Below, piece after piece: positions 34,158-62,546 of a stretch of DNA of 64,000 nt. A program made the position numbers and the translations under genes. Below the pieces are notes generated by a model. The model was not told where the DNA came from, searched no databases, and saw only the letters and a list, made by a program, of their open reading frames with translations. The stretch covers positions 1 to 64,000 of the forward strand of contig JAFYOS010000016.1 of the NCBI GenBank assembly GCA_017560125.1, given 5' to 3'. Each line of letters starts with the position of its first letter. The stretch's first letter is position 1. This DNA is from Bacteroidaceae bacterium (GTDB taxonomy: Bacteria; Bacteroidota; Bacteroidia; Bacteroidales; Bacteroidaceae).

Positions 34158-34175
34158 AATTTAAAAAATACGATT

Positions 34176-34859: not shown

Positions 34860-34880
34860 TATTTTATAAACAATCATACA

Positions 34881-37307: not shown

Positions 37308-37331
37308 TTTTAGGAACAACAATTTAATAAC

Positions 37332-41206: not shown

Positions 41207-42565
<1,359 letters not shown>

Positions 42566-42619: not shown

Positions 42620-43960
42620 TTATTCCTTCAGTGCGTCGGCGGGGCTGCTCTTTACCGATGCGGCAACGGGCAGGCTTGCTCCTACAGCGCACACCGCCAT
42701 TATGAACAGGTAGCTTATGCCGCTTACGATGAGGAAGTGGGGCACGGGCTTGTTGTACCATGCGAGGGTTTCACCTATGGGCTTAAAGCCGTTGCCATGG
42801 AAGCCTATAGGCTCGGCAAAGCCGCTTATGTATATATAGTGTATGAGTAGGGGCATTGCAAACGCAAAGGCTATGGTGGCAAGTATTGTCGCCTCGGTTA
42901 CGAACTGCCCTACGATGGTGGCACGGGTGGCGCCCACGCTCTGCATGATGCCTATCTCCTGGCGGCGGGCAACGGCTCGTACCCAAAATGTGCCGATGAT
43001 TCCCAACAGCGCGCATAGCAGTGCAAACGACGAGAGGATGATGTTTTTGCGATATTTATTTGTTATTCCTTGCATCTTCTCATATTGTTTTATCTTCTCG
43101 GCGTGCGAAGTGATGGTGTGGCAATAGATATTTCCTCCTCTCAGTGTGGGCATAATCTCGTTGCGGAATTTTTTTTCAAATTCGTCCTTGTCAGTCCCTT
43201 TCTTCACCTTAATATGCAGGTCGTAGTTCGCAAGAATTATTTGGGGTAAACGGGGCGATAATCTGTCGGGGAAAACAGCCGATGCATCGGGGTCGTGATA
43301 TGTATGAACCTGAACATCCTTAAATATTCCTTTTACGGTATATTTTATTTTATGATTCGAATAATTATTCTCTTGTTCTATTTCCTTGCCTATTGCGTTG
43401 TCTGTTCCGAATAGCTCTTTGGCAAGGCTTTCCGAAATATAGATGCAGTCCCAGCCTCTCTCTATTTCTATGATTTTATTTGTGCGTGCATCTGCGATGC
43501 CGTATGTGGCAAAGAAATTACTGTTTTCGGTTTCGTAGCAACTGAAATATTTTATAGTGGTTTCTGTTTTTTTGTTGTCGGCGCGCATGGTGCTGTCGAT
43601 GATATAATTGTTGTATGAAGCAGTATTGCCACCCGGGAAACCGTGCAACAGGGCGTAGCTCTCCACTTCGGGCAGCGACTCAATCTGTTGCAGCATTTGT
43701 ATGAATTTTTCTCCCGCTTCTTGGTTGCTGTACCCCTCGAAGCGTGTGTCGTGCTTGCGGCTTTTTTCTTTGTATCTTTCAAGGTCTATTATATATACGT
43801 CCTCGGCGTCGTAGCCTTTGTCTATGTTGTTGCGGCTAGTGATGTTGAACAGCGGGTCGATGGCGAGCCATATGCATATGCTCACTACGAACAGTTCAAG
43901 GAATATCCATGCGTTTTCTTTGCGCTCGTTCCATATCTGGTGCAGGATTTTTGTTATCAT
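42620..43960 (-). CDS. Array permease A6 (half-size MacB/FtsX type)
   Basis: 446 residues. Class A of the array: start MITKILHQIWNERKENAW, TM1 (about 17-38), periplasmic domain to ~285, three FtsX helices, coupling motif RRQEIGIMQSVGATRATI and C-terminal PADALKE. The periplasmic part has LPEVESY, a class A hallmark, and is otherwise its own sequence. Pairs with B6 upstream (12 bp). Last permease before the regulator genes (54 bp). Confidence 0.9.
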   Translation of the reverse strand: MITKILHQIWNERKENAWIFLELFVVSICIWLAIDPLFNITSRNNIDKGYDAEDVYIIDLERYKEKSRKHDTRFEGYSNQEAGEKFIQMLQQIESLPEVESYALLHGFPGGNTASYNNYIIDSTMRADNKKTETTIKYFSCYETENSNFFATYGIADARTNKIIEIERGWDCIYISESLAKELFGTDNAIGKEIEQENNYSNHKIKYTVKGIFKDVQVHTYHDPDASAVFPDRLSPRLPQIILANYDLHIKVKKGTDKDEFEKKFRNEIMPTLRGGNIYCHTITSHAEKIKQYEKMQGITNKYRKNIILSSFALLCALLGIIGTFWVRAVARRQEIGIMQSVGATRATIVGQFVTEATILATIAFAFAMPLLIHYIYISGFAEPIGFHGNGFKPIGETLAWYNKPVPHFLIVSGISYLFIMAVCAVGASLPVAASVKSSPADALKE

Positions 43961-43972
43961 GGGTGGGTATGT

Positions 43973-45292
43973 TTATCTTTTATGATACAGTGATTCTATA
44001 ATGTTTCTCTTCAGCGCAAGCAGGGTAGGCACAAGCGCCGAAGCGATGTTTAGTAGCAATGCGAGTAGCAACACCGATGCAATAACTGTGGGGTTGAAAA
44101 GCATTTCCAGTGTTATTCCCCTGGCTATGGTGTCGTTGCTTATTTCTTCGTCTAAAAGGGTTACTATCCAATCACAATTTTTATATACGATTATGTAGGT
44201 AAGTATAAACCCGATGATTGCTCCTATGGCAGTGAAGAGCATGTTTTCGTACAGCACCTGCGTTATTATCTGCCTGTTTGTAGCACCGTAGGCCTTGCGT
44301 ACACCTATTTCGGCCAGGCGGCTGTTCATGCGCGTGGATATCAGGCCGCAAAGGTTCAGCGCGGGGATTAACAGGAAGGCAAGCAGCAGATAGATATACT
44401 CCAGTATGGCTGTGAACAGGTTGCTGTCGTGTTTCACATCCATTGCCTTTTGCCAGTACTCGTAGATATTTATTTCTATTTTATTTTTGGTCGCGCCATT
44501 CTGTTGTAATATTCTTTTATATATCTCTTCAACCTCTTTTTTTATGGAGTCGCTTTGTTCGGCTGTCTCGGCAAGGGCGTACATGCATGTATGCCCACCG
44601 CTTATTATTTCGTTGGCATCTATATTGTAGAATTTATCTTCGTCGAAGTATCGCGCGTGATGTATGGATACGAATATATTGCCGGCCGATGGGGTATTTG
44701 TAAGGCATGTGCGCTGGTCTTCTACCACTCCCACTATGCTGTAACTGTCTGTATCAATGTATATGTGTCGTCCTACAACCTTTGTGGTTGCAAACAGCTT
44801 CTTGGCAAGCGAGGCGGTGATGACTGCTACGGGGCTATGTTCCTCCTCTTTGGTGAAAGGGCGTCCCTGCACGAAGCGGAAATTGAATAACTGCCAATAA
44901 CCGCAATCGACGTAGGCCGGCAGTTCGAATATTGTGGTGGTGCTGTTGTCGGACGATATTTCGCATATATGCTCAAGGGTGCTGTATAGCCCCTCTTCGC
45001 GTACTCCGACCTTTTTCAATAGCTTCGATTCCTGCTTCAACTGTTCTATGCATTTCAGCTTAGGGTAATCTATTCTGCCGCTTCCGTTTTCATTGCGTTC
45101 AATGATTTCTGAAAATATGAGCAATCGGTTGCGCTGCTCTTCGGGGTAGAGCGGCCCCAGTTTTATGTATAGTATGACGAAAATGGTCATGGCCATTGCT
45201 ATGCTTGCGGCTGTTCCTGCGATGTATATGCCAGTGAACAGTCGCTGCTGCTTCATCATTGTCCATGCTTGGCGAAAAAATTGTCTTATCAT
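43973..45292 (-). CDS. Array permease B6 (half-size MacB/FtsX type)
   Basis: 439 residues. Class B: start MIRQFFRQAWTMMKQQRLF, TM1 (about 20-43), YIKLGPLYPEEQR just after it, periplasmic domain, then FtsX helices with MNSRLAEIGVRKAYGATN and end ESLYHKR. 44 bp after tolC and 12 bp before A6, so tolC-B6-A6 form the distal sub-operon under the second sigma-54-like promoter. Confidence 0.9.
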   Translation of the reverse strand: MIRQFFRQAWTMMKQQRLFTGIYIAGTAASIAMAMTIFVILYIKLGPLYPEEQRNRLLIFSEIIERNENGSGRIDYPKLKCIEQLKQESKLLKKVGVREEGLYSTLEHICEISSDNSTTTIFELPAYVDCGYWQLFNFRFVQGRPFTKEEEHSPVAVITASLAKKLFATTKVVGRHIYIDTDSYSIVGVVEDQRTCLTNTPSAGNIFVSIHHARYFDEDKFYNIDANEIISGGHTCMYALAETAEQSDSIKKEVEEIYKRILQQNGATKNKIEINIYEYWQKAMDVKHDSNLFTAILEYIYLLLAFLLIPALNLCGLISTRMNSRLAEIGVRKAYGATNRQIITQVLYENMLFTAIGAIIGFILTYIIVYKNCDWIVTLLDEEISNDTIARGITLEMLFNPTVIASVLLLALLLNIASALVPTLLALKRNIIESLYHKR

Positions 45293-45336
45293 GGTTGGTT
45301 GTGGGTGTCTTGCCCTTTATATAATTGTTACAAATA

Positions 45337-46827
45337 TCACGAATTATTTTTACTTCGTTTAATTATTTTCTCGAAATCTGCATCGATGTTTGTGTTGCGC
45401 TCCCAGTCCCATAGGGTGATGCTGCGTATCTTGTAATAGTAGTACCAATAGTACATAAGCTCGGAAATGTGGTTGCGGCGTGCCTGGTCCTTGCTCACCT
45501 GGGCATCGTTCAGGTCGAGGGTGCTTATCTTGCCTATGATGAAGGTCTCGACGTTTGTCATGTAGCGTCGGCGGGCGATGGTGTCGGCCTCTTGTGCTAT
45601 TTCGAGCTGCGTGCGCTGGTTGTTGAACTGCTCGACAAGGATGAACAAGTTCTGTTTGAAGTTGAGCATCTCCTGTTCAATGCGGCTGGCGGTTATCTCG
45701 CGGTAGCTCTCGGCCATGCGCAGTCGGCCGCGGCGTTTGCCCCAGTCGATAAGTGGTATTTGAAGCCCAACTTGCACATATTGGTTGTCGTTCAGACGGT
45801 CGTAGGCTGGTTCAATGTCGCGATCGACGCCGCTCAATCCCACCTGTGCGGTCAGGTTTATCTGTCGCAGGTTGCCCTTGGCGCTGGCTACGTCGTAGTC
45901 GGCTTGCAGGCGACGGCGTTCAAGGTTTTTTGTGATGGAATTGTTTTCCAATGCCTTCTGAAGGACGTCGTCGTATATCAGTGCGATGGGCGAGAGCGTG
46001 TCGGGCTGCATGGGCTCTATCTCGCTATTCTCGTCGAGTGCAAGGAAGGAGCGCAGGGTGAACATGGCGCTCTTCATGTTGCTTTCATTCTCGGTGAGGG
46101 TGCTGCGGGCGTTCAGTGTGTTCAGGCGCAGCTGCAACAGGTCGTTGTCGCTTATCTTGCCCATGTCGTGCTTGGTGCGTGCCACCTCGTAGAGCTTTTC
46201 GGCGTTGTTGAGGTTTTGTCGGGCGATGCTCACATTCTCTTTGGCCAGCAGCAGGTTGAAAAAATAGTTGATGGCGCTCATGGTCACCTGTTCGGTGGCA
46301 GTCAGGAAGTTGGCCTTGGCCTCGGCATAGCGTATGGGCTCTATGCGGCGGTTCCACTTGGTGCTGTTCACTCCGAAGATGGGTTGGTTCAGGGTGAGGG
46401 CTATGGGGGTGCTCATGTAGCGCTGTTGCTTGTCGCCGCTAAGGGTTTTCAGGTAGTCGAGCGAGGAATTCAGCGACAGGGTTCCGCCTGTAGCCCATAT
46501 ATTCTGTTGCACCGACAGCTTGCCATACATCTGCATGTAGTTGTTGCGCACGAAGGTGTATGTACCATCGCTGTTCTGATAGCTGTTGTAGCTCTTGCTG
46601 TAGCTGGGCGCTGTTGCCTGGAAATTTATTTCGGGCAGAAGGCCGGCGCGATAGATGCGATACTGCCAATAGGCCGAGCGCAATTCGTCTAGGGCTACGG
46701 CGGCGTCGAGGCTCTGTGTGCGTGCCAGCAGTATGGTTTCTTCGAGGGTCAGGTGCATGACGTTGCTGTTTGCACCAATGGCGATGGTGGCAAGCAGTGT
46801 CATTACAAGGGTGGTCAGTCGTTTCAT
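45337..46827 (-). CDS. TolC-like outer membrane efflux protein of the array
   Basis: 496 residues. Signal peptide to about Ala19 (IAIGANSNV), then two OEP repeats with long helical segments (LTLEETILLARTQSLDAAV; TASRIEQEMLNFKQNLFIL). The only outer-membrane channel in the array. It has its own 169-bp upstream region containing a sigma-54-like promoter and activator block, unlike the other internal genes. Confidence 0.92.
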   Translation of the reverse strand: MKRLTTLVMTLLATIAIGANSNVMHLTLEETILLARTQSLDAAVALDELRSAYWQYRIYRAGLLPEINFQATAPSYSKSYNSYQNSDGTYTFVRNNYMQMYGKLSVQQNIWATGGTLSLNSSLDYLKTLSGDKQQRYMSTPIALTLNQPIFGVNSTKWNRRIEPIRYAEAKANFLTATEQVTMSAINYFFNLLLAKENVSIARQNLNNAEKLYEVARTKHDMGKISDNDLLQLRLNTLNARSTLTENESNMKSAMFTLRSFLALDENSEIEPMQPDTLSPIALIYDDVLQKALENNSITKNLERRRLQADYDVASAKGNLRQINLTAQVGLSGVDRDIEPAYDRLNDNQYVQVGLQIPLIDWGKRRGRLRMAESYREITASRIEQEMLNFKQNLFILVEQFNNQRTQLEIAQEADTIARRRYMTNVETFIIGKISTLDLNDAQVSKDQARRNHISELMYYWYYYYKIRSITLWDWERNTNIDADFEKIIKRSKNNS

Positions 46828-46852
46828 ATTATATTTTTTTATTTGTATAGTA

Positions 46853-46868
46853 TCAAAATGCGTGCCAA
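46853..46868 (-). promoter_or_regulatory. Sigma-54-like promoter of tolC
   Basis: Minus strand TTGGCACG-CATT-TTGA (complement of 46853-46868). The -24 half is a perfect TTGGCACG; the -12 half is TTGA rather than TTGC. The -24/-12 spacing is correct. It lies 25 bp before the tolC ATG. The same variant occurs at 62452-62467. Confidence 0.75.
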
Positions 46869-46912
46869 AGTATTATTCCCTTGTTTATTAGTGTGTTAGC
46901 TGTTTTTGTGGG

Positions 46913-46947
46913 TGTCCGTTTTCGGACAGTATGTTCGCTTTTGTACG
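46913..46947 (-). promoter_or_regulatory. Putative enhancer (activator) block upstream of tolC
   Basis: A palindrome TGTCCG-TTTT-CGGACA (46913-46928), 3 bp, then TGTTCG-CTTT-TGTACG (46932-46947). It matches 62512-62546 at 30 of 35 positions and sits 45 bp upstream of the -24 element. Likely binding site of the NtrC-type regulator at 41207-42565. Confidence 0.65.
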
Positions 46948-46996
46948 GTGCTGGGGTATTTATTGCTATTATTGTTTTTTCATGTATCGCATAAAA

Positions 46997-48277
46997 TTAT
47001 TCCTCTCTTAGTGCATCGGCGGGTTGTATTCGTGTAGCGCGATAGACGGGAATCCATGTGCCAATGATGGTAATCAGCAGCATTGCCACGTAGGTGATAG
47101 CCGTCACCCATGCAAAATGGATGTAGAAATTGTTCACTCCATACTCGGGGTTGGGCGTGAAACACTCCTTGTCGAAATAGCATACACCGGGCTGGGCGAA
47201 ACCTTCGGTTACCACGAAATGCAGCACAATGGGCATTGCCGTAGCAAATGCCAATGTGAGCAGAATGAGTGCTTCGGTGATGTACTGCTTCACCACACGG
47301 CTGCGCGATGCGCCCATGCTGCACATGATGCCTATGTCGCTGCGGCGGTTATCCATTCGTGTCCAGAATGTGCCAAGCATGCACAGGAATATGCAGGCGA
47401 GGGCGAAACTGCAGAAAATGAATTTCGGGCGCAGAGTGCTTGCTGCTATCTTGCTCGTTGAACTGTTTTTCAGATACTCGTCTATGCTAAGCAGCTTAAT
47501 CTCCTCTATGAATTTGCCGCACTCATCCTCGTTCAACATGTTATTGAGCTTTTGCGCGAAGAGCCTCCTGTCTGTGCCCTTTTGCAGTTTCACAATTATT
47601 TTGTTGGAGAGGCTCGAATAGAACCAGTCTTCTTCTATATTTATAAGATATATTATCGATGGTAGCGGTTCCACATAATCGTTTATTTTGTAATCCTCGT
47701 ACACGCCTATAATCTCGCGTTCCTCCATGGGTTTTTTGCCAATGACCTCTGTGGTGCCGTAGGTGTTTATTGCTGCCGATTTTGATACCAGTATTTGTGT
47801 CGCAGGGTTTATATTTTCGGGAAGCGTGAGCAGTTTGCCGCTGTTTGCATCCTTCAGCCCCAGGGTGTGAAGGGCATTTCTATCCCAATTCCATAGATAA
47901 TGAAATGCGAGTACTACATGCATCCCTTCCTGTTTATCGGGATCGGCGTACAGGGCGTCGCTTACAGATGTGGCATTGCCGTTGAAATTGGTTGTCAGCA
48001 TGGTGGTAATATGATTTTCAACCTCGGGCATCTTCTCTATCTTGTGTAGTATGTTCCTGAACACATCGAGATTATTTTCTGCGCTAACGTCGCACCTTAA
48101 TTCGATAAAATATCTATCCTCCTTTTCGTAGTTGTCGGGGATGGCCTTTGTGGCATAGATAACATACAGCGGGTCGATGAGCATCCACAGAAAGACGGCT
48201 ATAACAAGAAGCTCGGCAAATATCCAACTGTTTTGCCAGCGCTGGTTCCATATTTGGTGCAATATATTCTTTATCAT
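46997..48277 (-). CDS. Array permease A5 (half-size MacB/FtsX type)
   Basis: 426 residues. Class A: MIKNILHQIWNQRWQNSW, TM1, periplasmic domain with MPEVENH, FtsX helices with RRSDIGIMCSMGASRSRV, end PADALREE. Its last ~137 residues differ from those of A4 at only five positions, while the periplasmic domains are clearly different. 2 bp after B5. Last gene before the tolC promoter region. Confidence 0.9.
   Translation of the reverse strand: MIKNILHQIWNQRWQNSWIFAELLVIAVFLWMLIDPLYVIYATKAIPDNYEKEDRYFIELRCDVSAENNLDVFRNILHKIEKMPEVENHITTMLTTNFNGNATSVSDALYADPDKQEGMHVVLAFHYLWNWDRNALHTLGLKDANSGKLLTLPENINPATQILVSKSAAINTYGTTEVIGKKPMEEREIIGVYEDYKINDYVEPLPSIIYLINIEEDWFYSSLSNKIIVKLQKGTDRRLFAQKLNNMLNEDECGKFIEEIKLLSIDEYLKNSSTSKIAASTLRPKFIFCSFALACIFLCMLGTFWTRMDNRRSDIGIMCSMGASRSRVVKQYITEALILLTLAFATAMPIVLHFVVTEGFAQPGVCYFDKECFTPNPEYGVNNFYIHFAWVTAITYVAMLLITIIGTWIPVYRATRIQPADALREE
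46999..47410. repeat. Long direct repeat, copy 1 (3' end of A5)
   Basis: About 412 bp nearly identical to 49631-50042. It covers the C-terminal transmembrane and cytosolic part of A5, and identity stops abruptly at the periplasmic domain. Points to recent duplication or gene conversion. Confidence 0.85.
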
Positions 48278-48279
48278 AC

Positions 48280-49599
48280 CTATTTCCTTTTACTGAGTGA
48301 ATATACAATGCTGTGGCGCAGCGATGCCACAAGCGGAATGAATGCCGACGCTATGTTTATTGCCATGCACAGCAGCAGTGTGGCTATGAATAGCGGCACG
48401 TTGAATAGCGACGAGGTGGGCAGTTGCGGAGTGCCCATTTTTTGCGTATTATACATGCTTAGCGAAATTTGTTCTTCCGTGTCGTAAAGGTAGATTATCC
48501 ACTCTTCTGTGCAGTAAACAATGGCAATGCTCAGTAGCAATCCCAACGTGCCACCTATGAGCGTGAGCAGCATATTTTCGCATAGTATATGCCCGGCGAT
48601 GCTTTTGTTTGTTGCGCCGTAGGCCTTGCGCACGCCGAACTCCACCATGCGGTTCTCCATGCGCGAGAATATCATGTTGCCAAGGTTCAGTGCCGGAATC
48701 AGCAGGAAGGCGCTAATCATGATTATTATTTCGGTGAGGAATTTTCGGAGCGCATCGCTGTTGTATATCTGCTCTATGGTGGTGTTTATATTATCTATTT
48801 TGTATGCGCGTTTTTCGTTGTCGGCATTGATGCGTGTGACAAGGTTTTCAATCTCTTTTTTCAGTGCATCGCGCTCGCCGACGCTCTTTGCCGTAGCATA
48901 AATCCTGCAATTTCCCAACAGGGTATTTTCCATCTGCTTTTTATCTAGGTAGAGCTCCTCTTTGGGGCGCATGCTTATGGGTATATACATAGATGCAGAT
49001 GTCTCGGGTGTGATGCTCGTAACATCCTCGACCACTCCTACGATGGTAAGGTTTTTGCCGTTGACTATTATCTGTTCTCCGGCGACCTTGGTGGTCGAGA
49101 ATAGTTCGGTTGCGAGGCTGCGCGAAACGACAACCATCGGCGTCATTTTCTTCTCCTCGTCATCGTTGAATGAGCGGCCATCGATGAAATAAAAATCGAA
49201 CACTCGCCAGAATGGTGCATCGACATATGCTGCGGGTCGTTTCAAGCGCTTCTTGTTGTCGCTTGTCGTTACGGGAGTGCTGAAGTCGTAGTAGCTCCCG
49301 CTTTTGCAGCATACTTCGTCTAGGTGCTTGCAGTTTTCTTTAATTAGTGTGCTAAACGCGGGCGAAAAGTGTCTTTGTGCCCATTGCTCGCTCTCCTTTT
49401 CCTTGCTGGCCAAGTTGGGGAGTATCAGCATCCTGTCGCGGTTTTCTTCGGGATAGATAGGCGCGAATTTTATGTAGAGAACAGCGAAGGTAATCATTAT
49501 CATTGTTACCGACAGGGCTGTTCCGGCAATGTATATGCCGGTGAACAGCTTGTGCTGTTTCATCATCGTCCATGCTTGTCGTAGGGCTTGTTTTATCAT
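48280..49599 (-). CDS. Array permease B5 (half-size MacB/FtsX type)
   Basis: 439 residues. Class B: first 55 residues identical to B4 (MIKQALRQAWTMMKQHKLF start), then a different periplasmic domain. FtsX part with MENRMVEFGVRKAYGATN; end VYSLSKRK, a tail type shared only with B4 rather than the SLYHKR/ALYHRR of the other B proteins. Pairs with A5 (2 bp). Confidence 0.9.
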   Translation of the reverse strand: MIKQALRQAWTMMKQHKLFTGIYIAGTALSVTMIMITFAVLYIKFAPIYPEENRDRMLILPNLASKEKESEQWAQRHFSPAFSTLIKENCKHLDEVCCKSGSYYDFSTPVTTSDNKKRLKRPAAYVDAPFWRVFDFYFIDGRSFNDDEEKKMTPMVVVSRSLATELFSTTKVAGEQIIVNGKNLTIVGVVEDVTSITPETSASMYIPISMRPKEELYLDKKQMENTLLGNCRIYATAKSVGERDALKKEIENLVTRINADNEKRAYKIDNINTTIEQIYNSDALRKFLTEIIIMISAFLLIPALNLGNMIFSRMENRMVEFGVRKAYGATNKSIAGHILCENMLLTLIGGTLGLLLSIAIVYCTEEWIIYLYDTEEQISLSMYNTQKMGTPQLPTSSLFNVPLFIATLLLCMAINIASAFIPLVASLRHSIVYSLSKRK

Positions 49600-49607
49600 G
49601 GTGGGGT
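49433..49607. repeat. Direct repeat, copy 1 (5' end of B5)
   Basis: About 172 bp nearly identical to 52106-52277 (5' end of B4), and in part (about 90 bp) to 54859-54950 (5' end of B3). It encodes the N-terminal arm, TM1 and the first residues outside. Confidence 0.8.
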
Positions 49608-49628
49608 GTGTTATTTTTTATAATATGT

Positions 49629-50933: not shown

Positions 50934-50939
50934 GGTTAT

Positions 50940-52271: not shown

Positions 52272-52277
52272 GGTGTG
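52106..52277. repeat. Direct repeat, copy 2 (5' end of B4)
   Basis: Partner of 49433-49607, same orientation. Identity ends where the periplasmic domain begins. Confidence 0.8.
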
Positions 52278-52300
52278 GGTGTGTTATTTTTATAATATGT

Positions 52301-53632: not shown

Positions 53633-53637
53633 GGGGC

Positions 53638-54939: not shown

Positions 54940-54982
54940 GGTGGGGTGTATTGTTTTGTTGTATCCTTTTGCTATCGCAAGC

Positions 54983-55016
54983 GGTTAAGGGCCATTGCAG
55001 TAAATGGCCCTTAACC
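54983..55016. other. Strong hairpin between the array ATPase and permease B3
   Basis: Perfect 14-bp inverted repeat (54983-54996 and 55003-55016, 6-nt loop) 12 bp after the ATPase stop. No T run follows on the minus strand, so it is not a standard terminator. It may protect the 3' end of upstream mRNA or partly stop transcription. Confidence 0.6.
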
Positions 55017-55028
55017 TTTGTTGTGTGC

Positions 55029-55694
55029 CTATTCAATCTGGCGACCGTCGAAGAAGCGTATGGTGCGCGAGGTCTGCTTTGCCTGCTCCTCGTTGTGGGT
55101 TACCATCACAATGGTGCGGCCATCTTCGCGGTTCAGCTTGTGAAGGATCTCCATCACCTCGGCACCCATCTTCGAATCGAGGTTACCGGTGGGCTCATCG
55201 GCGAGGATAATCTCGGGGTTGCCTATGATGGCGCGGGCTATGGCTACACGCTGGCACTGACCGCCCGACAGCTGTGTGGGCATGTGGTACATGCGGTGTG
55301 TGAGCCCCACACGTTCGAGCATCTCCTTGGCAAGGCGTGTGCGCTCCTTGGCGCTTATCTTGCGATAGAGCAGGGGCAGTTCCACGTTGTCAATCACGTT
55401 GAGCGAGTTTATCAGGTGGAAGCTCTGGAAGACGAAGCCCAGGGTGTTGTTACGGAAGGCTGCAAGCTCCTTCTCGGTCATCTGATCGACGGTGGTGCCG
55501 GCAATCTCTATGGTGCCGCTTGTAGGCTTGTCGAGCAATCCCATGATGTTGAGCAGGGTGGATTTGCCACATCCCGAGGGTCCCATGATGCTAAGGAATT
55601 CTCCTTTGTGTACTTCGATGTTTACATTTTCGAGCGCCTGTGTCTCTACTGAATCGGTGCGGTAAATCTTGTTTACTCCAGTTAATTTAATCAT
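55029..55694 (-). CDS. Sole ABC ATP-binding protein of the permease array (MacB/LolD type)
   Basis: 221 residues: Walker A GPSGCGKST, Q loop FQSFHLINSL, signature LSGGQCQR, Walker B IILADEPTGNLDS, H loop THN. The only nucleotide-binding domain among twelve permeases from 42.6 to 61.1 kb. It lies in the middle of the locus, after A2 (47 bp) and before B3. It presumably powers all permease pairs. Confidence 0.96.
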   Translation of the reverse strand: MIKLTGVNKIYRTDSVETQALENVNIEVHKGEFLSIMGPSGCGKSTLLNIMGLLDKPTSGTIEIAGTTVDQMTEKELAAFRNNTLGFVFQSFHLINSLNVIDNVELPLLYRKISAKERTRLAKEMLERVGLTHRMYHMPTQLSGGQCQRVAIARAIIGNPEIILADEPTGNLDSKMGAEVMEILHKLNREDGRTIVMVTHNEEQAKQTSRTIRFFDGRQIE

Positions 55695-55741
55695 AATTGT
55701 ATGGTTTTAATTGTTAATATATAATTCGTTTTTTACGGTTT

Positions 55742-57016
55742 CTATTCTCTTAGCGCGTCGGCCGGCAGCGAGCGTGTGATGCGTATCGATGGCAGCAGTG
55801 CGCCGGCAATGGCTATTGCACTTATCAGCAGATAGGCAACGGCTGTGACTATGGCAAAGTGGGGCAGTGCGCGGTTGTGCAGATAGCTTTGGTCGGGGGT
55901 CTCGTTGTGTATCCACGAGGGTACCTTGGCTAGTGGCTCGGCGAAGCCCTCGACATATATGTAGTGCGCGATGAACGGCATCGATACAATGAAGGCAACT
56001 GTAACGAGTATCATCGCTTCGGCGACAAACTGCCCTATGACGCGCCCTTTGGTTGCTCCCATACTGCGCATGATGCCTATGTCGCGACGGCGGCTGTTGG
56101 TGCGTATCCAGAATGCGCTTAACACGCCCAAGAAGGCACAGAAGAGCGCGAAGCCCGACAGCCCGGCATAGAGGCGGTACTTGTTGGTGATGTTGTATTG
56201 CTTGTCGTGTTTCTCTATGCGCTCCATGTACGATTCCAATCCGGTGATGTGATAGACGCCGTGGCTGTACTTGGGCATAATTTCCTCTTCAAATTTCTTT
56301 TTGAACGCATCTTCGTCGGTGCTGTCCTTTAGCCTGAAATAGATTTCTTCGCCGAATGTAAAGTTATCGACGTTGTTGCAGAAAAGTACGATTGGGGTGT
56401 ATTCGTCGTAGTTGAGTAGCTGTAAATCTTCGAACACTCCTAAAATGGTGAACTCCTCACGGTGTACATTCATAATCTTCTTACCAACTACGTCGGTGGT
56501 GCCGAAAAGCGACATTGCTTGGCGTCGCGACAGATAAGCACCGTCGCTTCCTGCATAGTCGGCCTGTTGCAGCACCTTGCCTGTCTTTACATCAATCGCT
56601 CTTATTGTCTCGAAGAGACGGCTCTTGTCGTTGGTTTTAATATTGTAAAAGCGTGCTGCTTTCCAATCGACGAGGCTGTCGGGCCTGTCGTCGGGAATAG
56701 CCAGCATGGTCGATGAATATCCGCCGGGGTTGGGTTGTAATTCGCATTGGGCTATGAAACTACATTCTATTTCGGGAATATTGTCAAACGCATCGGCTAA
56801 CTGATTTAGAAATTCTTTTTCGGTATTGTAAGCGTCGTACTTCACTTTATATACTTTTTCGGGGGTGTAGCCTTTGGGTAGGTTGCCGCGACACACAAGA
56901 GTGAACAGTGGGTCGATGGCGAGCCACAGGAACAGGCTGGCGACTATCAGTTCAAGGAAGAGCCACGCGTTTTGCTTGCGCTCGTTCCATATTTGGTGTA
57001 TGATTTTTGTTATCAT
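55742..57016 (-). CDS. Array permease A2 (half-size MacB/FtsX type)
   Basis: 424 residues. Class A: MITKIIHQIWNERKQNAW, TM1, periplasmic domain with IPEIECS, FtsX helices with RRRDIGIMRSMGATKGRV, end LPADALRE. 64 bp after B2, 47 bp before the ATPase. Confidence 0.9.
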   Translation of the reverse strand: MITKIIHQIWNERKQNAWLFLELIVASLFLWLAIDPLFTLVCRGNLPKGYTPEKVYKVKYDAYNTEKEFLNQLADAFDNIPEIECSFIAQCELQPNPGGYSSTMLAIPDDRPDSLVDWKAARFYNIKTNDKSRLFETIRAIDVKTGKVLQQADYAGSDGAYLSRRQAMSLFGTTDVVGKKIMNVHREEFTILGVFEDLQLLNYDEYTPIVLFCNNVDNFTFGEEIYFRLKDSTDEDAFKKKFEEEIMPKYSHGVYHITGLESYMERIEKHDKQYNITNKYRLYAGLSGFALFCAFLGVLSAFWIRTNSRRRDIGIMRSMGATKGRVIGQFVAEAMILVTVAFIVSMPFIAHYIYVEGFAEPLAKVPSWIHNETPDQSYLHNRALPHFAIVTAVAYLLISAIAIAGALLPSIRITRSLPADALRE

Positions 57017-57080
57017 GGTGCGTGGTGTTTTGTTTTTCTTTTTCTTTTTCGTATGTTATTAGCATTAAGTAACGCGGTGG

Positions 57081-58337
57081 TTATCTTTTATGATAGAGCG
57101 ACTGAATGATATCCTTCTTCAGAGCTATAAGCGTAGGCACAAGCGCTGAAGCTATGTTCAGCACCAACGTCAGTGCCACTATGCAGACAATAACCGTGGG
57201 GTTCAGCAGCATGTCGGCGTTTATTTCGCGTGGCGAGAGGTCGTTTACGCGGGTATCGAAAAAGGCGGTTATCCAACTGCTGCCGGTGATGATTACTATG
57301 TAGCTGAGGACTACTCCCAGCACGGTGCCGACGATGGTCAGCAACAGATTTTCCCATAGCACTTGTGTGATAATTTCGCTGTTGGTGGCACCGTAGGCCT
57401 TGCGTACACCTATTTCGTCTAGACGGCTGTCCATGCGCGAAGAGATCATTCCGCTCAGGTTAAGCGCGGGGATGAATAGAAACGCCAGCAGTATGTAAAG
57501 GTATTTTCCCATTGCCTCGAAGGGGGTTGTCTCGGTGTCGCAGTCGAGCGCATTCTGCCAATATTTTTCCATCTCCATTGTGTAAGTGAAGTTTTTGGGT
57601 CTCGTTTGAGTGTATCGGTTGAATGCATCGTTAATCTCGGCCATACATTTATCGATGTTGTCCGAAGTTATATATGCATGATAGTGGCCCTGAAATTCAT
57701 TTTCGTTGTAAAATACAGATGCGATCCATATGTTGCCTTGTGTGATGGGGGTGCAACCGCTTGCTGCTTCCACCACTCCCACTATTCTATAGGGCGTATC
57801 ATCGATGTTAAGGCTTTTGCCGGCAACGTGTGTGTCGGCAAAGAGTTCCTGTGCAAGGGTGGTGCTGATTACTGCTACATTTTCGTTCATCTGCTCCTTG
57901 GTGAAGGGCAGGCCGTCGATGAATCGGTAGTTGAATACCTGCCAATATTCGGCGTTCACATTGGCAATGTTTTCTACTCTTTTCTTGCTCTTGTCGATTG
58001 TTTCAACGTTTCTATTTCTTTGATTACTTGAGAGTAACGCTACTTTGTCTATGCTTTTGCCCTCGCGTTTCAATAGGTCGGCGAATTTGCCGGATATTCC
58101 CAATCCGCGTGTGGATGAGTAACCTCCCTCGTGCTTTTCGCATTCCTGTGTGTTCTCAATCACCAGCATACGTTGGCGGTTGTACTCGGGATATACCGGG
58201 CCCAGTTTAATGTAAAAAATGATGAATAGGGTCATGGCAAGGGCTATGCTGACGGCTGTGCCTATCAGGTACATGCCTGTGAAGAGCTTTTGCTGTTTCA
58301 TCATTGTCCATGCTTGGTGCAGAAAATGTTTTATCAT
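57081..58337 (-). CDS. Array permease B2 (half-size MacB/FtsX type)
   Basis: 418 residues, the shortest of the class B set. MIKHFLHQAWTMMKQQKLF, TM1, periplasmic domain, FtsX helices with MDSRLDEIGVRKAYGATN, end QSLYHKR. 28 bp after A1. Confidence 0.9.
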   Translation of the reverse strand: MIKHFLHQAWTMMKQQKLFTGMYLIGTAVSIALAMTLFIIFYIKLGPVYPEYNRQRMLVIENTQECEKHEGGYSSTRGLGISGKFADLLKREGKSIDKVALLSSNQRNRNVETIDKSKKRVENIANVNAEYWQVFNYRFIDGLPFTKEQMNENVAVISTTLAQELFADTHVAGKSLNIDDTPYRIVGVVEAASGCTPITQGNIWIASVFYNENEFQGHYHAYITSDNIDKCMAEINDAFNRYTQTRPKNFTYTMEMEKYWQNALDCDTETTPFEAMGKYLYILLAFLFIPALNLSGMISSRMDSRLDEIGVRKAYGATNSEIITQVLWENLLLTIVGTVLGVVLSYIVIITGSSWITAFFDTRVNDLSPREINADMLLNPTVIVCIVALTLVLNIASALVPTLIALKKDIIQSLYHKR

Positions 58338-58365
58338 GGTCGTTTGGTTTTTATTGTGGTTGTTC

Positions 58366-59691
58366 TTATTCTTTTAATGCATCGGCGGGGCGCTCCTTCA
58401 CCGTTGCCGCGGTGGGGATGGTTGCGCCTATTGTGCTTATGAGCACCACCATTAGGTAGCTTGCAATGGTTACTACCACGAAGCGCGCTATGGGTTGGCT
58501 GTGCAGGTACTCGCCCTGCTGGTAGCCAATGCTCTTGATATAGCCTTCGAGTGGCTGTGCAAAGCCGCTTACATATACCTTGTGGGCGATGAGGGGTAGG
58601 GCAAGTACGAAGGCAAGGCTCGACAGCATCAGCGCTTCGGTTACAAACTGCCGCACTATAGTGGTGCGTGTGGCGCCAATGCTCTGCATGATACCTATCT
58701 CGCGGCGGCGAGCCGAAGCACGCAACCAGAATGTGCCGAAGATACCCATAAATCCGCAAAGCAGGGCAAAGAGCGAGAGGATAATATTCTGTCGGTAGAG
58801 GTTGTTTATTCCGTATATTTCCGATACGCCATCTATTGTTTCTTGCATAGAGCTTATGCCTGAGCAATAGTAGTTGCCGGCCTTCAGCTTGGGCTGCACT
58901 TCGGCAGCGAAGCGTTTCGCAAATTTATCGGCATCGACACCATCTTTCAGCTTTATCGTCAGGGTGCGCATGAAAAGATAGTTGCCGCCTGCATGTGTCA
59001 GCAGTTTTTCCATTACAATCATTATAGGCAAATATTCGTCGTAGATTTTGTGTTGGAAATTTTCTATTACGCCCATCACCTTCCATCGGAAATCTCTGTC
59101 GCGCTCGGCATGGAACTCCTGTCCCACGCAGTCGGTTGTGCCGAACAGCTCCATGGCGGCAAGTTCGCTGATGTAGGCATTCAGTATGCCCGGTTGAACC
59201 TCGCCTTTCTGCTCGACTACCTTGCCGGTTTTCGCGTCCTTTATTCTGTAGGTCTTGAAGTAGTTGTAGTCGTTGGCATAGAAGTATCTCATCGGGACGG
59301 TTACTTCTCTTCCGTCGGCGCGTTGTGTGCTATCTACACTGCATTTGCTGTTGAAGGCTTCGCCGTTTCCCGGGTACATAAACCCTATGCTGTGTGTCTC
59401 CACTTCGGGGAGCTCTTTTATTATGTTAACGCATTGCATATAGGCGTCGGCAATGTATTGCTTGTCTTCGAGCTTGGGGTCGTACTTTGTACTGCCTTCT
59501 ATCTGCTTTTTGAAATTTATTGTATAGCCATTGTTGTTGTCGTAATTTGCGGGTATGTTGTTGCGGCTGACGAGATCGACTATGGGGTCGATGCTGAGCC
59601 ACACGAAGAGGCTCACGACGACGAGCTCCAGGAAGAGCCATGCGTTTTGCTTGCGCTCATTCCATATTTGGTGAAGGGTTTTTGTTATCAT
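58366..59691 (-). CDS. Array permease A1 (half-size MacB/FtsX type)
   Basis: 441 residues. Class A: MITKTLHQIWNERKQNAW, TM1, periplasmic domain with LPEVETH, FtsX helices with RRREIGIMQSIGATRTTI, end RPADALKE. The closest class A relative is A6 at the far end of the array. 78 bp after B1. Confidence 0.9.
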   Translation of the reverse strand: MITKTLHQIWNERKQNAWLFLELVVVSLFVWLSIDPIVDLVSRNNIPANYDNNNGYTINFKKQIEGSTKYDPKLEDKQYIADAYMQCVNIIKELPEVETHSIGFMYPGNGEAFNSKCSVDSTQRADGREVTVPMRYFYANDYNYFKTYRIKDAKTGKVVEQKGEVQPGILNAYISELAAMELFGTTDCVGQEFHAERDRDFRWKVMGVIENFQHKIYDEYLPIMIVMEKLLTHAGGNYLFMRTLTIKLKDGVDADKFAKRFAAEVQPKLKAGNYYCSGISSMQETIDGVSEIYGINNLYRQNIILSLFALLCGFMGIFGTFWLRASARRREIGIMQSIGATRTTIVRQFVTEALMLSSLAFVLALPLIAHKVYVSGFAQPLEGYIKSIGYQQGEYLHSQPIARFVVVTIASYLMVVLISTIGATIPTAATVKERPADALKE

Positions 59692-59769
59692 GGGTGGTGT
59701 TATTGTTTCTATTTCGAATCGAATGTTATTTTACTAAGTATAGTCCTAAGTAACCTTAATCATATTCTT

Positions 59770-61068
59770 TTACCTTCTATGATACAGCGCCTCGATGATG
59801 TTTCCTCGCAACGCCAGCACTGTGGGGATAAGTGCCGAGGCGATGTTCAGCACCATGGTGATGAGTAGCACTATGGCTACAACCGTGGGGTTCAGCAGCA
59901 TTTCCATCGTCAGTCCCGTTGTGGGGCCTGTGTGAATGCCTTTATCGAGTAGCGTGATTATCCAATCGTATCCGCCGGCTACAAGCAGGTAGGAGAGCAG
60001 CAAGCCTATTGCCGCGCCTACGAAGGTGAGCAGTAGGTTTTCGTACAGCACTTGCGAAATTATATGTCGGGTGGTGGCTCCATAGGCGCGACGCACGCCT
60101 ACTTCGTCCAGACGGTTGTTCATGCGGGTGGATATCATTCCGCACAGGTTCAGGGCGGGGATGAACAGGAAGGCGAGTATCGCATACAGGTATTTTGCTA
60201 TGCCGTTGTATAGGCTGCCCTCTTGTCCGAATGTATTGTATAGCTGGAAGGCATTTTCCCAATGCTTAATAAGCGACAGATGGAATTCAGAATCGCCGTA
60301 GCCCGAAAATTGCTGTATATATTTGTTGAAGATATCCTTGATTTCGTTTTTTAGTGCATCGACCTCGTGTGCCGATTTTGCAAGCATGAATATTTGTTTG
60401 TTGCCTATGATGTCTTTGTCTTCGTTCATCAATTTGTCGCGGTAGTAGGCTGGTGCCCAGATGTCGCTGCTTGTGTGGCCGCTTTCTTGGCCGGTGGCTG
60501 CCGGTTCCACTACGCCCACTATCTTGTGCTGTGTGTTGTCTATGCTCACATGTTCGCCACATATGTCGTGACGGGCAAATAGCTTGTCGGCGAGCGTGGT
60601 GGTTACCACTGCAACGGGTTCGTACTCCTCCTGCGCGGTGAATCCGTGGCCGTGGATGAAACGGAAATCGAATAGGTTCCAGTATTCGCTATCGACATAT
60701 GCGGCCTCTTCTATTGTTTCTGTTTCGTTCTTTATATTTGTGATTATCTGCTCACTGGGAATGCCGGTCAATCGGATGCACATCTTATCTATGTGCTTGG
60801 CCTCTTTCTTGATGGCATCGACAAGCCGTTGTGTGGTAGCTCCGAACTCGCTGTAGTCGTCGCTTTTGTGGTATTCTTGTATCCACACGAAGCTCAGCAT
60901 CCTGTCGCGGTTGTACTCGGGGTAGAGAGGGCCCAGTTTTATATAGAGGGTGATGATGACGGCCATTGCCATGGCTATGCTTATGGCGGTGCCGGCGATA
61001 TACATGACGGTGAACAGTCGCTGCTGCTTCATCATCGTCCATGCCTGTCGGAAAAATTGTCTTATCAT
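59770..61068 (-). CDS. Array permease B1 (half-size MacB/FtsX type)
   Basis: 432 residues. Class B: MIRQFFRQAWTMMKQQRLF (same arm as B6), TM1, periplasmic domain, FtsX helices with MNNRLDEVGVRRAYGATT, end EALYHRR. First permease after the adaptor, from which a 91-bp spacer with a hairpin separates it. Confidence 0.9.
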   Translation of the reverse strand: MIRQFFRQAWTMMKQQRLFTVMYIAGTAISIAMAMAVIITLYIKLGPLYPEYNRDRMLSFVWIQEYHKSDDYSEFGATTQRLVDAIKKEAKHIDKMCIRLTGIPSEQIITNIKNETETIEEAAYVDSEYWNLFDFRFIHGHGFTAQEEYEPVAVVTTTLADKLFARHDICGEHVSIDNTQHKIVGVVEPAATGQESGHTSSDIWAPAYYRDKLMNEDKDIIGNKQIFMLAKSAHEVDALKNEIKDIFNKYIQQFSGYGDSEFHLSLIKHWENAFQLYNTFGQEGSLYNGIAKYLYAILAFLFIPALNLCGMISTRMNNRLDEVGVRRAYGATTRHIISQVLYENLLLTFVGAAIGLLLSYLLVAGGYDWIITLLDKGIHTGPTTGLTMEMLLNPTVVAIVLLITMVLNIASALIPTVLALRGNIIEALYHRR

Positions 61069-61114
61069 GGTTGTTTGCTATTACGGGTTCTTGCTGTAGT
61101 GCTCTCCTTGCGGT

Positions 61115-61142
61115 GGCAATGGCGCGTTTTTACGCCATTGCC
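61115..61142. other. Hairpin between the array adaptor and permease B1
   Basis: Perfect 10-bp GC-rich inverted repeat (61115-61124 and 61133-61142, 8-nt loop), 17 bp after the adaptor stop, with no T run. Like the one after the ATPase, it could set relative expression of the shared subunit. Confidence 0.55.
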
Positions 61143-61159
61143 GGTGTCGAATACATAAC

Positions 61160-62407
61160 TTATTTTAATTTTATTTTCTCTTTGTGGGCGAATGTGGATA
61201 CATCGGATATTACCACTTGGTCGCCCTCTTGCAGCCCCTCGACAACCTCTACATGGTCGAAGTTAGAGTCGCCCAGCTTCACCTTGCGGCGTATCAGCTC
61301 GTTCTGCTCGTTGCGCACGAATAGGTTGTATGTGCCTGCTCCCACATAGTACGAGGCGTTGCGTATGCGTAGCACATCGTCGTGTATGGAATTCATTATA
61401 TATACATCGGTGCGCACACCGGGTCGCAGGCGTTTGTGGTTGTCGTTGATGAGGCGCACTTCGAACTGTATGCTGCCGTTAAGGCTCTTGGGGGCTACGT
61501 TGCCTATGCGTCCTTCGAGCTTTTCGGTGCCTATCTTCACTAGGCATTTTTTGCCGGGTGATACATATTCGCTCATGGCGTCGGATATTTGTGCTTTTAT
61601 GATGTAGTGGCCAAGGTCGGATATGATGGCTATCTGGCTGCCGCTACCCACTTGGGCACCTATCTGCTCGTTGATGTAGGTGAGGACGGCCTTGCGGGGC
61701 GAAAGGATGCGGGCGTCGTCGAAGGTGCGCTTCATCTCCTCGAGCTTTTTTGTGAAGATGGCGAATTCGAGCTCCTGCACGCGCACGTTCGATGCTTTTA
61801 TCTCGCGGTCGTTCTTCAGCTGTTCGCGCTGCTGCTCAAGACGCAGGCGGGCGGTCTGTACGGCCATTTCGGCCTGTCGCACCTTGTCGGCTGTTCCCGA
61901 ACCGATGCTGTCGAGGTAGCGCTCGTTGTTGAGCTCGGCTTCTAAGCGGTTCAGCTCCATTGCGTTTATCTTTATGTTCATTTCGAGGCTCGACAGGGCG
62001 GTCTTGTTGTTCAGTTTCAGTTGCTCGAGCTGGTGGCGGCGTATCTCTTTTTCGTCGAGCAGTTTCTTGTACTCGTTCTCGGTGCTGGTGAGGTCGAGGC
62101 GCAGCAGGGGAGTGCCCACATCGACGCTGTCGCCGCTGTGGCAATAGACCTCTACTATGCGCGAACTGATGGGCGAATTTATTATCTCCTCGAAGGCTGG
62201 ATGCACTTCGCCCGAGGCTGTCACGCTGGTCTCTATGGTGCCGTGGTCGATGGTGCTGAAGGTGAGCGATTTTGCGTTCACCGTGCTGCGGGCGTAGTTG
62301 ATGCCTGCCGCGACGATGGCTGCGAGCAGTGCGAATGCGCCTACTATTTTGCCTATGCGGATAAGCATCTTTTTCTGCTTTTCTTTTTTGGGTATTTCTC
62401 TGTCCAT
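61160..62407 (-). CDS. HlyD/MacA-type periplasmic adaptor of the permease array
   Basis: 415 residues. Basic N-terminus, TM helix (about 18-37), lipoyl half (EEIINSPISSRIVEVYCHSGDSV), long coiled-coil hairpin (~95-215), second lipoyl half (RILSPRKAVLTYINEQIGA), beta-barrel and C-terminal strands. The only adaptor in the array and the first gene after the upstream sigma-54-like promoter. It should bridge permease pairs to the TolC at 45337-46827. Confidence 0.93.
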   Translation of the reverse strand: MDREIPKKEKQKKMLIRIGKIVGAFALLAAIVAAGINYARSTVNAKSLTFSTIDHGTIETSVTASGEVHPAFEEIINSPISSRIVEVYCHSGDSVDVGTPLLRLDLTSTENEYKKLLDEKEIRRHQLEQLKLNNKTALSSLEMNIKINAMELNRLEAELNNERYLDSIGSGTADKVRQAEMAVQTARLRLEQQREQLKNDREIKASNVRVQELEFAIFTKKLEEMKRTFDDARILSPRKAVLTYINEQIGAQVGSGSQIAIISDLGHYIIKAQISDAMSEYVSPGKKCLVKIGTEKLEGRIGNVAPKSLNGSIQFEVRLINDNHKRLRPGVRTDVYIMNSIHDDVLRIRNASYYVGAGTYNLFVRNEQNELIRRKVKLGDSNFDHVEVVEGLQEGDQVVISDVSTFAHKEKIKLK

Positions 62408-62451
62408 AATTTTTTGTTGTTCGTTTGTGGTATTTTTCTACCATATACATA

Positions 62452-62467
62452 TCAAAAACCGTGCCAA
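62452..62467 (-). promoter_or_regulatory. Sigma-54-like promoter of the array
   Basis: Minus strand TTGGCACG-GTTT-TTGA (complement of 62452-62467): perfect -24 half, -12 half TTGA instead of TTGC, correct spacing, 44 bp before the adaptor ATG. Same form as the tolC promoter. Confidence 0.75.
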
Positions 62468-62511
62468 ACTGTTAATGCGTTGATAATGTGGTGAATGACG
62501 ATTTTCGGGGG

Positions 62512-62546
62512 TGTACGATTTCGGACACTTTGTTCGTTTTTGTACG
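62512..62546 (-). promoter_or_regulatory. Putative enhancer (activator) block upstream of the array
   Basis: TGTACG-ATTT-CGGACA (62512-62527), 3 bp, TGTTCG-TTTT-TGTACG (62531-62546); half-sites recur about every 10 bp. 30 of 35 positions match 46913-46947, at nearly the same distance from the -24 element. Confidence 0.65.

What the first reader, a model, noticed from the sequence alone, without database searches (positions are those of the whole stretch)
42620..62407. Twelve half-size MacB/FtsX permeases sharing one ATPase, one adaptor and one TolC
Seen: twelve 418-446-residue permeases on one strand, in six B-then-A pairs, with a single nucleotide-binding protein (55029-55694), one HlyD adaptor (61160-62407) and one TolC (45337-46827). 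Known: a MacB/LolCDE exporter uses two permease subunits and two copies of an ATPase. Inference: each B/A pair is a heterodimer and the six pairs compete for common ATPase, adaptor and channel, giving one exporter with exchangeable substrate-receiving heads. Runs of FtsX-like permeases occur in Bacteroidetes genomes, but I know of no described mechanism for an array of this size.
Basis: partly seen in the sequence, partly recalled or inferred. Interest (0 to 1): 0.85.

Follow-up and report, generated by a model that had tools for sequence, protein, structure and literature searches.

The report
Expandable permease array on one ATPase
A gut bacterium carries six matched pairs of export-pump membrane proteins but only one motor, one connector and one outer channel for them, and relatives carry the same pump with one to seven pairs, which suggests a machine whose receiving heads can be multiplied.

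Summary
Twelve MacB/FtsX-type permeases (418-446 aa) form six A-B pairs with one ATPase, one HlyD adaptor and one TolC, followed by an NtrC-type regulator and a histidine kinase. It is not an assembly oddity: in 20 Bacteroidales loci seen end to end, pairs number 1 to 6 while the ATPase is single in 19; the isolate Bacteroides oleiciplenus has 7 pairs and one ATPase on one contig. A-B pairs are the units of change: their trees match by pair (r 0.93; partner shuffles at most 0.73), more than equally adjacent non-cognate neighbours (0.95 against 0.81). Across paralogues, membrane and ATPase-facing parts are conserved and partly gene-converted; the periplasmic heads are old, divergent, under purifying selection, with orthologues elsewhere. 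Sigma-54 sites stand before adaptor, TolC or ATPase, before none of 224 permease genes; the exact enhancer-promoter pattern occurs twice in this genome, both here. The ten other similar ATPases all fit other systems. Best reading: a VarACDEF/MacAB-TolC-like exporter with a multiplied set of heterodimeric heads on a shared motor. Sharing is inferred from genomes; binding, competition and substrates are untested. New variant of a known kind.

The parts
61160..62407 (-). HlyD/MacA-like periplasmic adaptor, first gene of the operon
   Evidence: HlyD_3, HlyD_D23; RND_mfp under cut-off
59770..61068 (-). A1 permease (MacB_PCD + FtsX)
58366..59691 (-). B1 permease (FtsX)
57081..58337 (-). A2 permease
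55742..57016 (-). B2 permease
55029..55694 (-). single ATPase (MacB/LolD/DarD-like NBD)
   Evidence: ABC_tran; best NCBIfam DarD, LolD, under cut-off
53638..54939 (-). A3 permease
52301..53632 (-). B3 permease
50940..52271 (-). A4 permease; 5' end near-identical to that of A5 (gene conversion)
49629..50933 (-). B4 permease; 3' end near-identical to that of B5 (gene conversion)
48280..49599 (-). A5 permease
46997..48277 (-). B5 permease
45337..46827 (-). TolC-family outer-membrane channel
   Evidence: OEP
43973..45292 (-). A6 permease
42620..43960 (-). B6 permease
41207..42565 (-). NtrC-type sigma-54 activator (response regulator)
   Evidence: Sigma54_activat, Response_reg, HTH_8
39873..41189 (-). 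histidine kinase, two N-terminal TM helices with a very short link
   Evidence: HATPase_c; hydropathy
62451..62468 (-). sigma-54 -24/-12 promoter-like site before HlyD (TTTGGCACGGTTTTTGAT)
62512..62546 (-). enhancer-like (UAS) block of the first promoter
46852..46869 (-). second sigma-54 promoter-like site, before TolC (TTTGGCACGCATTTTGAT)
46913..46947 (-). enhancer-like block of the second promoter, same layout
54983..55016 (-). 14-bp-stem hairpin right after the ATPase gene, no U tract on the transcribed strand
61115..61142 (-). hairpin right after the HlyD gene

Best explanation
One operon, probably NtrC/sigma-54-controlled, encodes a tripartite MacB-type (type VII) ABC exporter with a multiplied receiving part. 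Each adjacent A and B permease forms a fixed heterodimer, equivalent to one fused ~800-aa permease. Two copies of the single ATPase dock on the conserved cytoplasmic loops of any pair, and the common adaptor and TolC complete the channel. The pairs differ in their periplasmic heads, so they probably accept different periplasmic substrates (peptides or amphipathic toxins by family analogy, not shown). Evolution adds, keeps or loses whole A-B pairs while motor, adaptor, channel and regulator stay single; within a genome the membrane parts are partly homogenised by gene conversion and the heads are kept apart. Shown: anatomy, size series, pair co-evolution, conversion tracts, promoter-like sites. 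Inferred: heterodimer, shared docking, shared channel, different substrates, and that pairs coexist and compete.
For: Gene-order table of 42 contigs from 34 genomes: A precedes B (exceptions below). In 20 end-to-end loci pairs number 1,2,3,4,5,6 in 5,8,3,1,2,1 loci, one ATPase in 19 of 20. Tree distances of A and B over 104 pairs: r 0.926, against mean 0.578 and maximum 0.728 in 2000 within-genome partner shuffles. Linkage control, 46 triplets: cognate 0.948, equally adjacent non-cognate 0.811, bootstrap difference 0.084-0.222. Fused permeases: the A profile scores the N half over the C half in 7 of 7, the B profile the C half over the N half in 6 of 7; A1 and B1 align to the first and second part of ADOP. 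Window paralogue identity: cytoplasmic loop 0.67 (A), 0.59 (B); heads 0.28, 0.26. Conversion tracts A4/A5, B4/B5. dN/dS 0.04-0.25 in 30 orthologue comparisons chosen by me. Ten of ten other ATPases (E <= 1e-20) placed in other systems or families. Sigma-54 sites: HlyD 18 of 32, TolC 4 of 22, ATPase 5 of 33, A 0 of 115, B 0 of 109, background 31 of 5000. Exact enhancer-plus-promoter pattern twice in this genome, both here. Tested one-pair precedent VarACDEF (PMC5595328, passages).
Against: Pair co-evolution is also what tandem duplication of two-gene units gives; the linkage control reduces this but does not remove it; nearest neighbours agree in only 72 of 104 pairs. On N halves of fused permeases the B profile outscores the A profile in 4 of 7, so A is not clearly 'the N half'. 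One locus (G203) has two ATPases. In G028 the fourth A of a contig has no B in the next 5 kb. The locus is patchy: a clear A-type (E < 1e-80) is seen in 14 of 37 same-genus genomes, the own included, perhaps partly through broken assemblies. One ATPase for six pairs needs more ATPase than permease, and the dosage devices found are not general: an ATPase promoter site in 5 of 33 loci, four of them one Bacteroides lineage; the hairpin test fails against permease gaps of 40 nt or more (p 0.75). No substrate gene was recognised.
Confidence: 0.62

Rival explanations
1. Sensor-exporter array: the MacB-type pairs are also receptors. Their ATPase cycling is read by the short-loop, intramembrane-type kinase in the same operon, as BceAB is read by BceS, so any occupied head raises the whole operon through the NtrC-type regulator.
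For: The 20 kinases of at least 380 aa examined show two N-terminal TM cores 7-17 residues apart and no periplasmic sensor domain in 19; one (G070) shows an extra core. Regulator and kinase, or the regulator, were seen with the array in 23 of 34 genomes. BceB is MacB-related and its kinase is proposed to sense transporter cycling (PMC10314905, passages; PMC5985334, passages).
Against: The kinase has a PAS-like domain and could sense a cytoplasmic or membrane signal instead. The stretches fetched for B. oleiciplenus and its kin show no kinase gene beside the array. No set of unrelated kinases was measured as a control. No kinase-permease contact was tested.
Confidence: 0.2
2. Combinatorial mixing: any A pairs with any B, giving up to 36 heads.
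For: TM parts of some paralogues are homogenised within a genome, so non-cognate packing may be possible.
Against: Pair-specific co-evolution; in one comparison both heads of pair 2 share the same more recent history between two species (head dS 0.18 in A and in B, rest 0.61 in both).
Confidence: 0.08
3. Ordinary paralogue expansion: several separate pumps, most redundant or weakly used, with ATPase and channel simply borrowed; no system-level meaning.
For: A-type permeases are spread over Bacteroidales (30 of 393 genomes, the own included); pair number varies freely among species.
Against: Heads are under purifying selection in the comparisons made and have orthologues in other species; alternation and single-copy motor are kept over an order.
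Confidence: 0.2
4. Most pairs use other ATPases encoded elsewhere.
For: The genome encodes other MacB/LolD-type ATPases.
Against: The two nearest (58%, 55%) sit with fused permeases; the next two match LolD and FtsE best, and the genome has LolC/E-like and FtsX-like proteins, though not adjacent in each case; the other six match PotA, MsbA, AztA, GldA, PstB and MlaF best. The regulatory pattern is not found elsewhere.
Confidence: 0.05

Closest known systems
VarACDEF of Vibrio cholerae
   Same: Two different 4-TM MacB-like permeases, separate ATPase, adaptor and outer-membrane channel (PMC5595328, passages); equals a one-pair locus such as G001 or G341.
   Different: One pair only; LysR-type regulation; here 1 to 7 pairs and NtrC/sigma-54-type control.
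MacAB-TolC
   Same: MacB_PCD and FtsX domains, adaptor, TolC; A profile matches MacB structures at 1.6e-18, B at 5.3e-11.
   Different: MacB is a homodimer with fused ATPase (PMC5985334, passages; PMC5595328).
ADOP / DarB / YbbP fused permeases
   Same: A1 aligns to the first, B1 to the second part of ADOP; half-by-half scores lean the same way.
   Different: Here split into two genes; scores far under the ADOP cut-off.
ECF group II importers and MceG
   Same: Several specificity units sharing one motor (PMC7755397, start of abstract in listing; PMC9947336, abstract).
   Different: Importers of other families (unit genes scattered in the genome: recalled); here an exporter with all units in one operon and adaptor and channel shared as well.
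Bce modules
   Same: MacB-related permease with an intramembrane-sensing kinase (PMC10314905, passages).
   Different: BceB is a 10-TM single permease; no adaptor or TolC (recalled); here an NtrC-type regulator.

Membership tests
MacB (type VII) ABC superfamily | FtsX domain and 4-TM layout with a periplasmic domain after TM1 | tested here: met
   FtsX over cut-off 12 of 12; hydropathy gives TM1, a long gap, then three further TM regions in 9 of 12 and four (third region split) in p1, p3 and p7
MacB (type VII) ABC superfamily | MacB_PCD periplasmic domain | tested here: inconclusive
   over cut-off in 6 of 6 A and 2 of 6 B; one B under cut-off, three B without a match at 0.001
Tripartite MacAB-TolC-type exporter | adaptor and TolC encoded with the permease | tested here: met
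Tripartite MacAB-TolC-type exporter | assembled adaptor-permease-TolC complex exporting a substrate | not testable with these tools
   needs biochemistry; structure prediction off
LolCDE | LolC/E equivalog score | tested here: not met
   A1 scores 19.6 bits against cut-off 362; B1 not listed (only A1 and B1 were scanned); the genome has separate LolC/E-like proteins
ADOP fused permease | single ~800-aa duplicated permease over cut-off 622 | tested here: not met
   A1 127.9, B1 92.4 bits
Bce module | intramembrane-sensing kinase with transporter | tested here: met
   hydropathy of 20 kinases, 19 with two close TM cores; sensing itself untested
Bce module | 10-TM BceB permease with one large extracellular domain | tested here: not met
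   4-TM-type paired permeases
ECF group II | EcfT scaffold and S-components | tested here: not met
   the 12 permeases match FtsX/MacB families and no ECF family in Pfam at 0.001

The most novel reading that the evidence does not exclude
A single envelope machine that both senses and exports through many interchangeable receptor heads: each A-B head recognises a different periplasmic compound, all drive one ATPase, one adaptor and one TolC, and the shared conformational cycling is read by one sensor-less kinase that tunes the whole operon, so the repertoire can be enlarged by adding two-gene head cassettes without new motors or regulators.
Probability: 0.2. Interest if true: 0.85.

Novelty: new variant of a known kind. 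Interest (0 to 1): 0.62.

Why it matters
If several heterodimeric heads share one motor and one trans-envelope channel, efflux capacity can be broadened by adding two-gene cassettes. That would be an export counterpart of the shared-motor ECF and MceG importers, with a natural series from one to seven heads in which to test it, including cultured Bacteroides. It would also give a tractable system for asking how one ATPase chooses among partners.

Tried and rejected
Hairpin dosage idea: hairpins directly after HlyD and ATPase in the window and several near relatives are strong (z -3.2 and -5.0 in the window), but over the loci shared subunits differ from permeases only weakly (p 0.035) and not from permease gaps of 40 nt or more (p 0.75; 17 of 66 such gaps fold below -15 kcal). 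Kept only as a local feature.

Rapid head shuffling: rejected as the main mode. The best A-head match lies in another genome in 34 of 34 cases (mean 0.816 against 0.354 for own paralogues), for B in 28 of 28. Pair 2 of window and G020 has heads of A and B more alike at silent sites than the rest of the genes; other comparisons are mixed or the other way round (for example B of G028/G020 pair 1: head 0.17, rest 0.06).

Complex modelling: an alignment of A-B pairs read through the intervening stop was prepared, but the predictor is switched off.

Limits of the census: at most 4 candidates per genome were scored, so its copy numbers are lower bounds; of its 30 genomes with a match I looked at the locus in 13 and did not fetch 17. 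The loci were chosen by me, with preference for genomes with several matches, so the size distribution is not a random sample. Left out of the table: L053 (G009, contig ends inside an A), L076 and duplicate copies. Arrays break short-read assemblies: G003, G009 and G020 have a piece of the locus running into a contig end, so sizes in MAGs are minima. The tree set keeps A and B of 380-560 aa only; A ORFs over 470 aa were trimmed to a conserved start.

Paper searches for a description of such arrays listed none that is, by title and abstract start, about them; most listed papers were not opened. One search (ADOP) gave nothing of use.
Full report
WHAT IS THERE. Read along the transcript (- strand): HlyD adaptor, A1 B1, A2 B2, ATPase, A3 B3, A4 B4, A5 B5, TolC, A6 B6, NtrC-type response regulator, histidine kinase. 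A-type permeases carry MacB_PCD and FtsX, B-type FtsX with a weak or undetected MacB_PCD. Profiles of A and B match solved MacB at 1.6e-18 and 5.3e-11. The ATPase is of the MacB/LolD/DarD kind but under the cut-off of each of the 25 NCBIfam models shown. The window belongs to an unnamed 2.61-Mb genome; relatives found by name are Bacteroidaceae/Bacteroidales MAGs (several from water buffalo, roe deer and goat gut), Bacteroides isolates and MAGs, and Prevotellaceae MAGs.

A SIZE SERIES. I fetched the locus from relatives and annotated all with the same profiles; the final table has 42 contigs from 34 genomes. In 20 loci seen from HlyD to TolC or the regulator genes, the number of A-B pairs is 1 in G001, G056, G341, G104 and SRR78; 2 in G012, G034, G007, G019, G353, G396, G070 and G163; 3 in G014, G029 and G203; 4 in G401; 5 in G024 and G146; 6 in the window. 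The ATPase is single in 19; G203 has two. G056 has no TolC in the stretch. The other loci are cut by contig ends or show no TolC and regulator in the stretch fetched: B. oleiciplenus 7 pairs, B. stercorirosoris 6, B. cellulosilyticus 5 (one A interrupted), each with one ATPase; G061 7 pairs over two contigs with one ATPase; G020 eight A genes over four contigs, with no ATPase on them. The loci are my choice and not a random sample. In the genus, 14 of 37 genomes (own included) show a clear A-type (E < 1e-80), so the locus is patchy or often unassembled. Over the order, 30 of 393 genomes (own included) have an A-type permease at E <= 1e-45 (at most four candidates scored per genome); I looked at 13 of these 30 loci.

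THE PAIR IS THE UNIT. A is followed by B except at contig ends, at one interrupted A gene (G066), at one 83-aa A fragment (G241), and in G028, where the fourth A of contig C135 is followed by unrelated genes and no B matches in the next 5 kb. Trees of 109 A and 104 B proteins give matching distances over 104 pairs (r 0.926; within-genome partner shuffles mean 0.578, maximum 0.728, 0 of 2000 reach it; nearest neighbours agree in 72 of 104). To separate this from linkage, I compared 46 directly adjacent triplets: cognate A-B r 0.948, the equally adjacent B and next A r 0.811; the bootstrap difference over genomes is 0.084-0.222. Against seven fused permeases the A profile prefers the N half in 7 of 7 (some margins are 1 to 2 bits) and the B profile the C half in 6 of 7; but on the N halves the B profile outscores the A profile in 4 of 7. 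So a pair looks like a fused permease cut in two, more clearly for B than for A. A heterodimer is the natural reading, but it is inference.

HEADS AND ENGINES. Within the window the six A share 0.67 identity in the first helix and in the cytoplasmic (ATPase-facing) loop, but 0.28 in the periplasmic head; the six B share 0.52, 0.59 and 0.26. In a clade of six genomes each head's best match is in another genome (A 34 of 34; B 28 of 28), mean identity 0.82 and 0.72 against 0.35 and 0.33 for the best own paralogue. Heads are thus old, separately kept specificities. dN/dS is 0.04-0.25 in 30 orthologue comparisons that I chose from the tree; several dS values are near saturation. Adjacent pairs exchange membrane parts: the first 40 codons of A4 and A5 are 98-100% identical at DNA level while their orthologues in G061 are 80-87%; the last ~135 codons of B4 and B5 are 83-97% identical while their heads are 37-75%. 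The ATPase is the most conserved part compared: 96-97% between window and three relatives, against 85-92% for HlyD and 86-87% for TolC.

NO OTHER MOTOR FOUND. Besides this one, ten ATPases of the genome match it at E <= 1e-20. Two (58% and 55%) sit with fused permeases: three on C26, two at 34881-39791. The others match best LolD, FtsE, PotA, MsbA, AztA, GldA, PstB and MlaF; apart from PotA these scores are under the family cut-offs. The genome also has two LolC/E-like proteins and an FtsX-like protein. The two fused-permease loci have 2 and 3 permeases per ATPase, so permease excess over ATPase is a habit of this genome.

CONTROL. A sigma-54 -24/-12 site starts 59 nt before HlyD and a second one 40 nt before TolC, each preceded, 45 nt upstream, by an enhancer-like palindrome TGTCCG-N4-CGNACA. 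The palindrome (TGTNCG-N4-CGNACA) is found within 200 nt before HlyD in 26 of 32 loci, TolC 5 of 22, ATPase 0 of 31 and regulator 4 of 23; background 35 of 4000. Sigma-54 sites stand before HlyD in 18 of 32, TolC 4 of 22, ATPase 5 of 33 (four from one Bacteroides lineage), A 0 of 115, B 0 of 109, regulator 0 of 23, kinase 2 of 22; background 31 of 5000. ATPase plus TolC against permeases: Fisher p 2.6e-7, inflated by relatedness. In this genome the exact pattern TGTCCG-N4-CGNACA, 30-60 nt, TGGCA occurs twice, both here, and its reversed control not at all (looser forms were not searched). RpoN is present. In other species the pattern also occurs away from the array (G013, G014, G020). A 2025 survey already reports sigma-54 enrichment of an FtsX-like permease COG in Bacteroidia (PMC12316311, passages). 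Of 20 kinases examined, 19 have two N-terminal TM cores 7-17 residues apart; G070 shows an extra core; all also show a hydrophobic stretch in the PAS region near residue 120, which I take to be soluble. Intramembrane-sensing kinases of Bce modules look alike in this respect (PMC10314905, passages).

MECHANISM. The simplest working unit is known: VarD and VarE (two 4-TM MacB-like permeases), VarF ATPase, VarA adaptor and VarC channel form a tripartite pump (PMC5595328, passages), and the MacB review lists homodimer, heterodimer and fused layouts (PMC5985334, passages). A one-pair locus here has this parts list plus a regulator and kinase. I take the array to be this machine with its receiving heterodimer multiplied. 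Sharing of the motor by all pairs follows from the lack of alternatives and from conservation of the ATPase-facing loop; it is not shown. That heads bind different substrates follows from their divergence and retention; it is not shown. Competition for motor and channel would follow if motor or adaptor is limiting, as has been proposed for ECF transporters (PMC7755397, start of abstract in search listing). The extra promoters before TolC and ATPase in some loci would ease that limit.

VERDICT. Observation right, interpretation plausible and strengthened, but its physical core is untested. It is a new variant of a known kind; no paper listed in searches is, by title and abstract start, about it.

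Noticed in passing
window 31452-39791: Convergent neighbour: a second MacB-type system with two fused ~810-aa permeases per single ATPase (TolC, HlyD, ATPase, M1, M2); the kinase at 29804-30781 beside it also begins with two hydrophobic stretches and a short link (by eye).
   Followed up: partly
window 23388-29609: An RND efflux gene set with a TetR-type regulator (AcrB-like 1057 aa, adaptor, OEP): three tripartite exporters lie within about 40 kb.
   Followed up: no
L056 5067-12034 (own genome C26): Three fused ~770-aa permeases with a single ATPase, plus HlyD, TolC and an NtrC-type regulator.
   Followed up: partly
L079 11759-12448 and L081 11652-12912: In B. oleiciplenus and B. stercorirosoris a gene for a secreted-looking ~206-210-aa protein sits inside the array between a B and the next A (after the pair that follows the ATPase).
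   Followed up: no
L091 2856-5704 (G203): A gene for an 860-868-aa secreted-looking protein lies between the last B and TolC; this locus also has two ATPase genes.
   Followed up: no
L083/L084 (B. cellulosilyticus): One A gene of the array is interrupted by several kb of inserted DNA.
   Followed up: no
L086, L037, L033-L036: Gaps between array genes in G061, G028 and G020 hold short interspersed inverted-repeat elements (CTCTCCCTCTT...AAGAGGGAG); by eye I saw none in the window's gaps printed.
   Followed up: no
L112, L118 (G013, G014): The same enhancer-promoter signature lies before a ~484-aa secreted-looking protein gene, next to a gene that looks like ispE (recalled), a possible second target of the regulator in some species.
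   Followed up: partly
L037 14832-20000 (G028): After the fourth A gene the contig continues with unrelated genes on the other strand instead of a B gene: rearrangement or chimeric assembly.
   Followed up: partly
window 54983-55016 and 61115-61142: Strong hairpins directly after the ATPase and HlyD genes without a terminator U tract on the transcribed strand; also present, with other sequence, in several near relatives, not general.
   Followed up: yes
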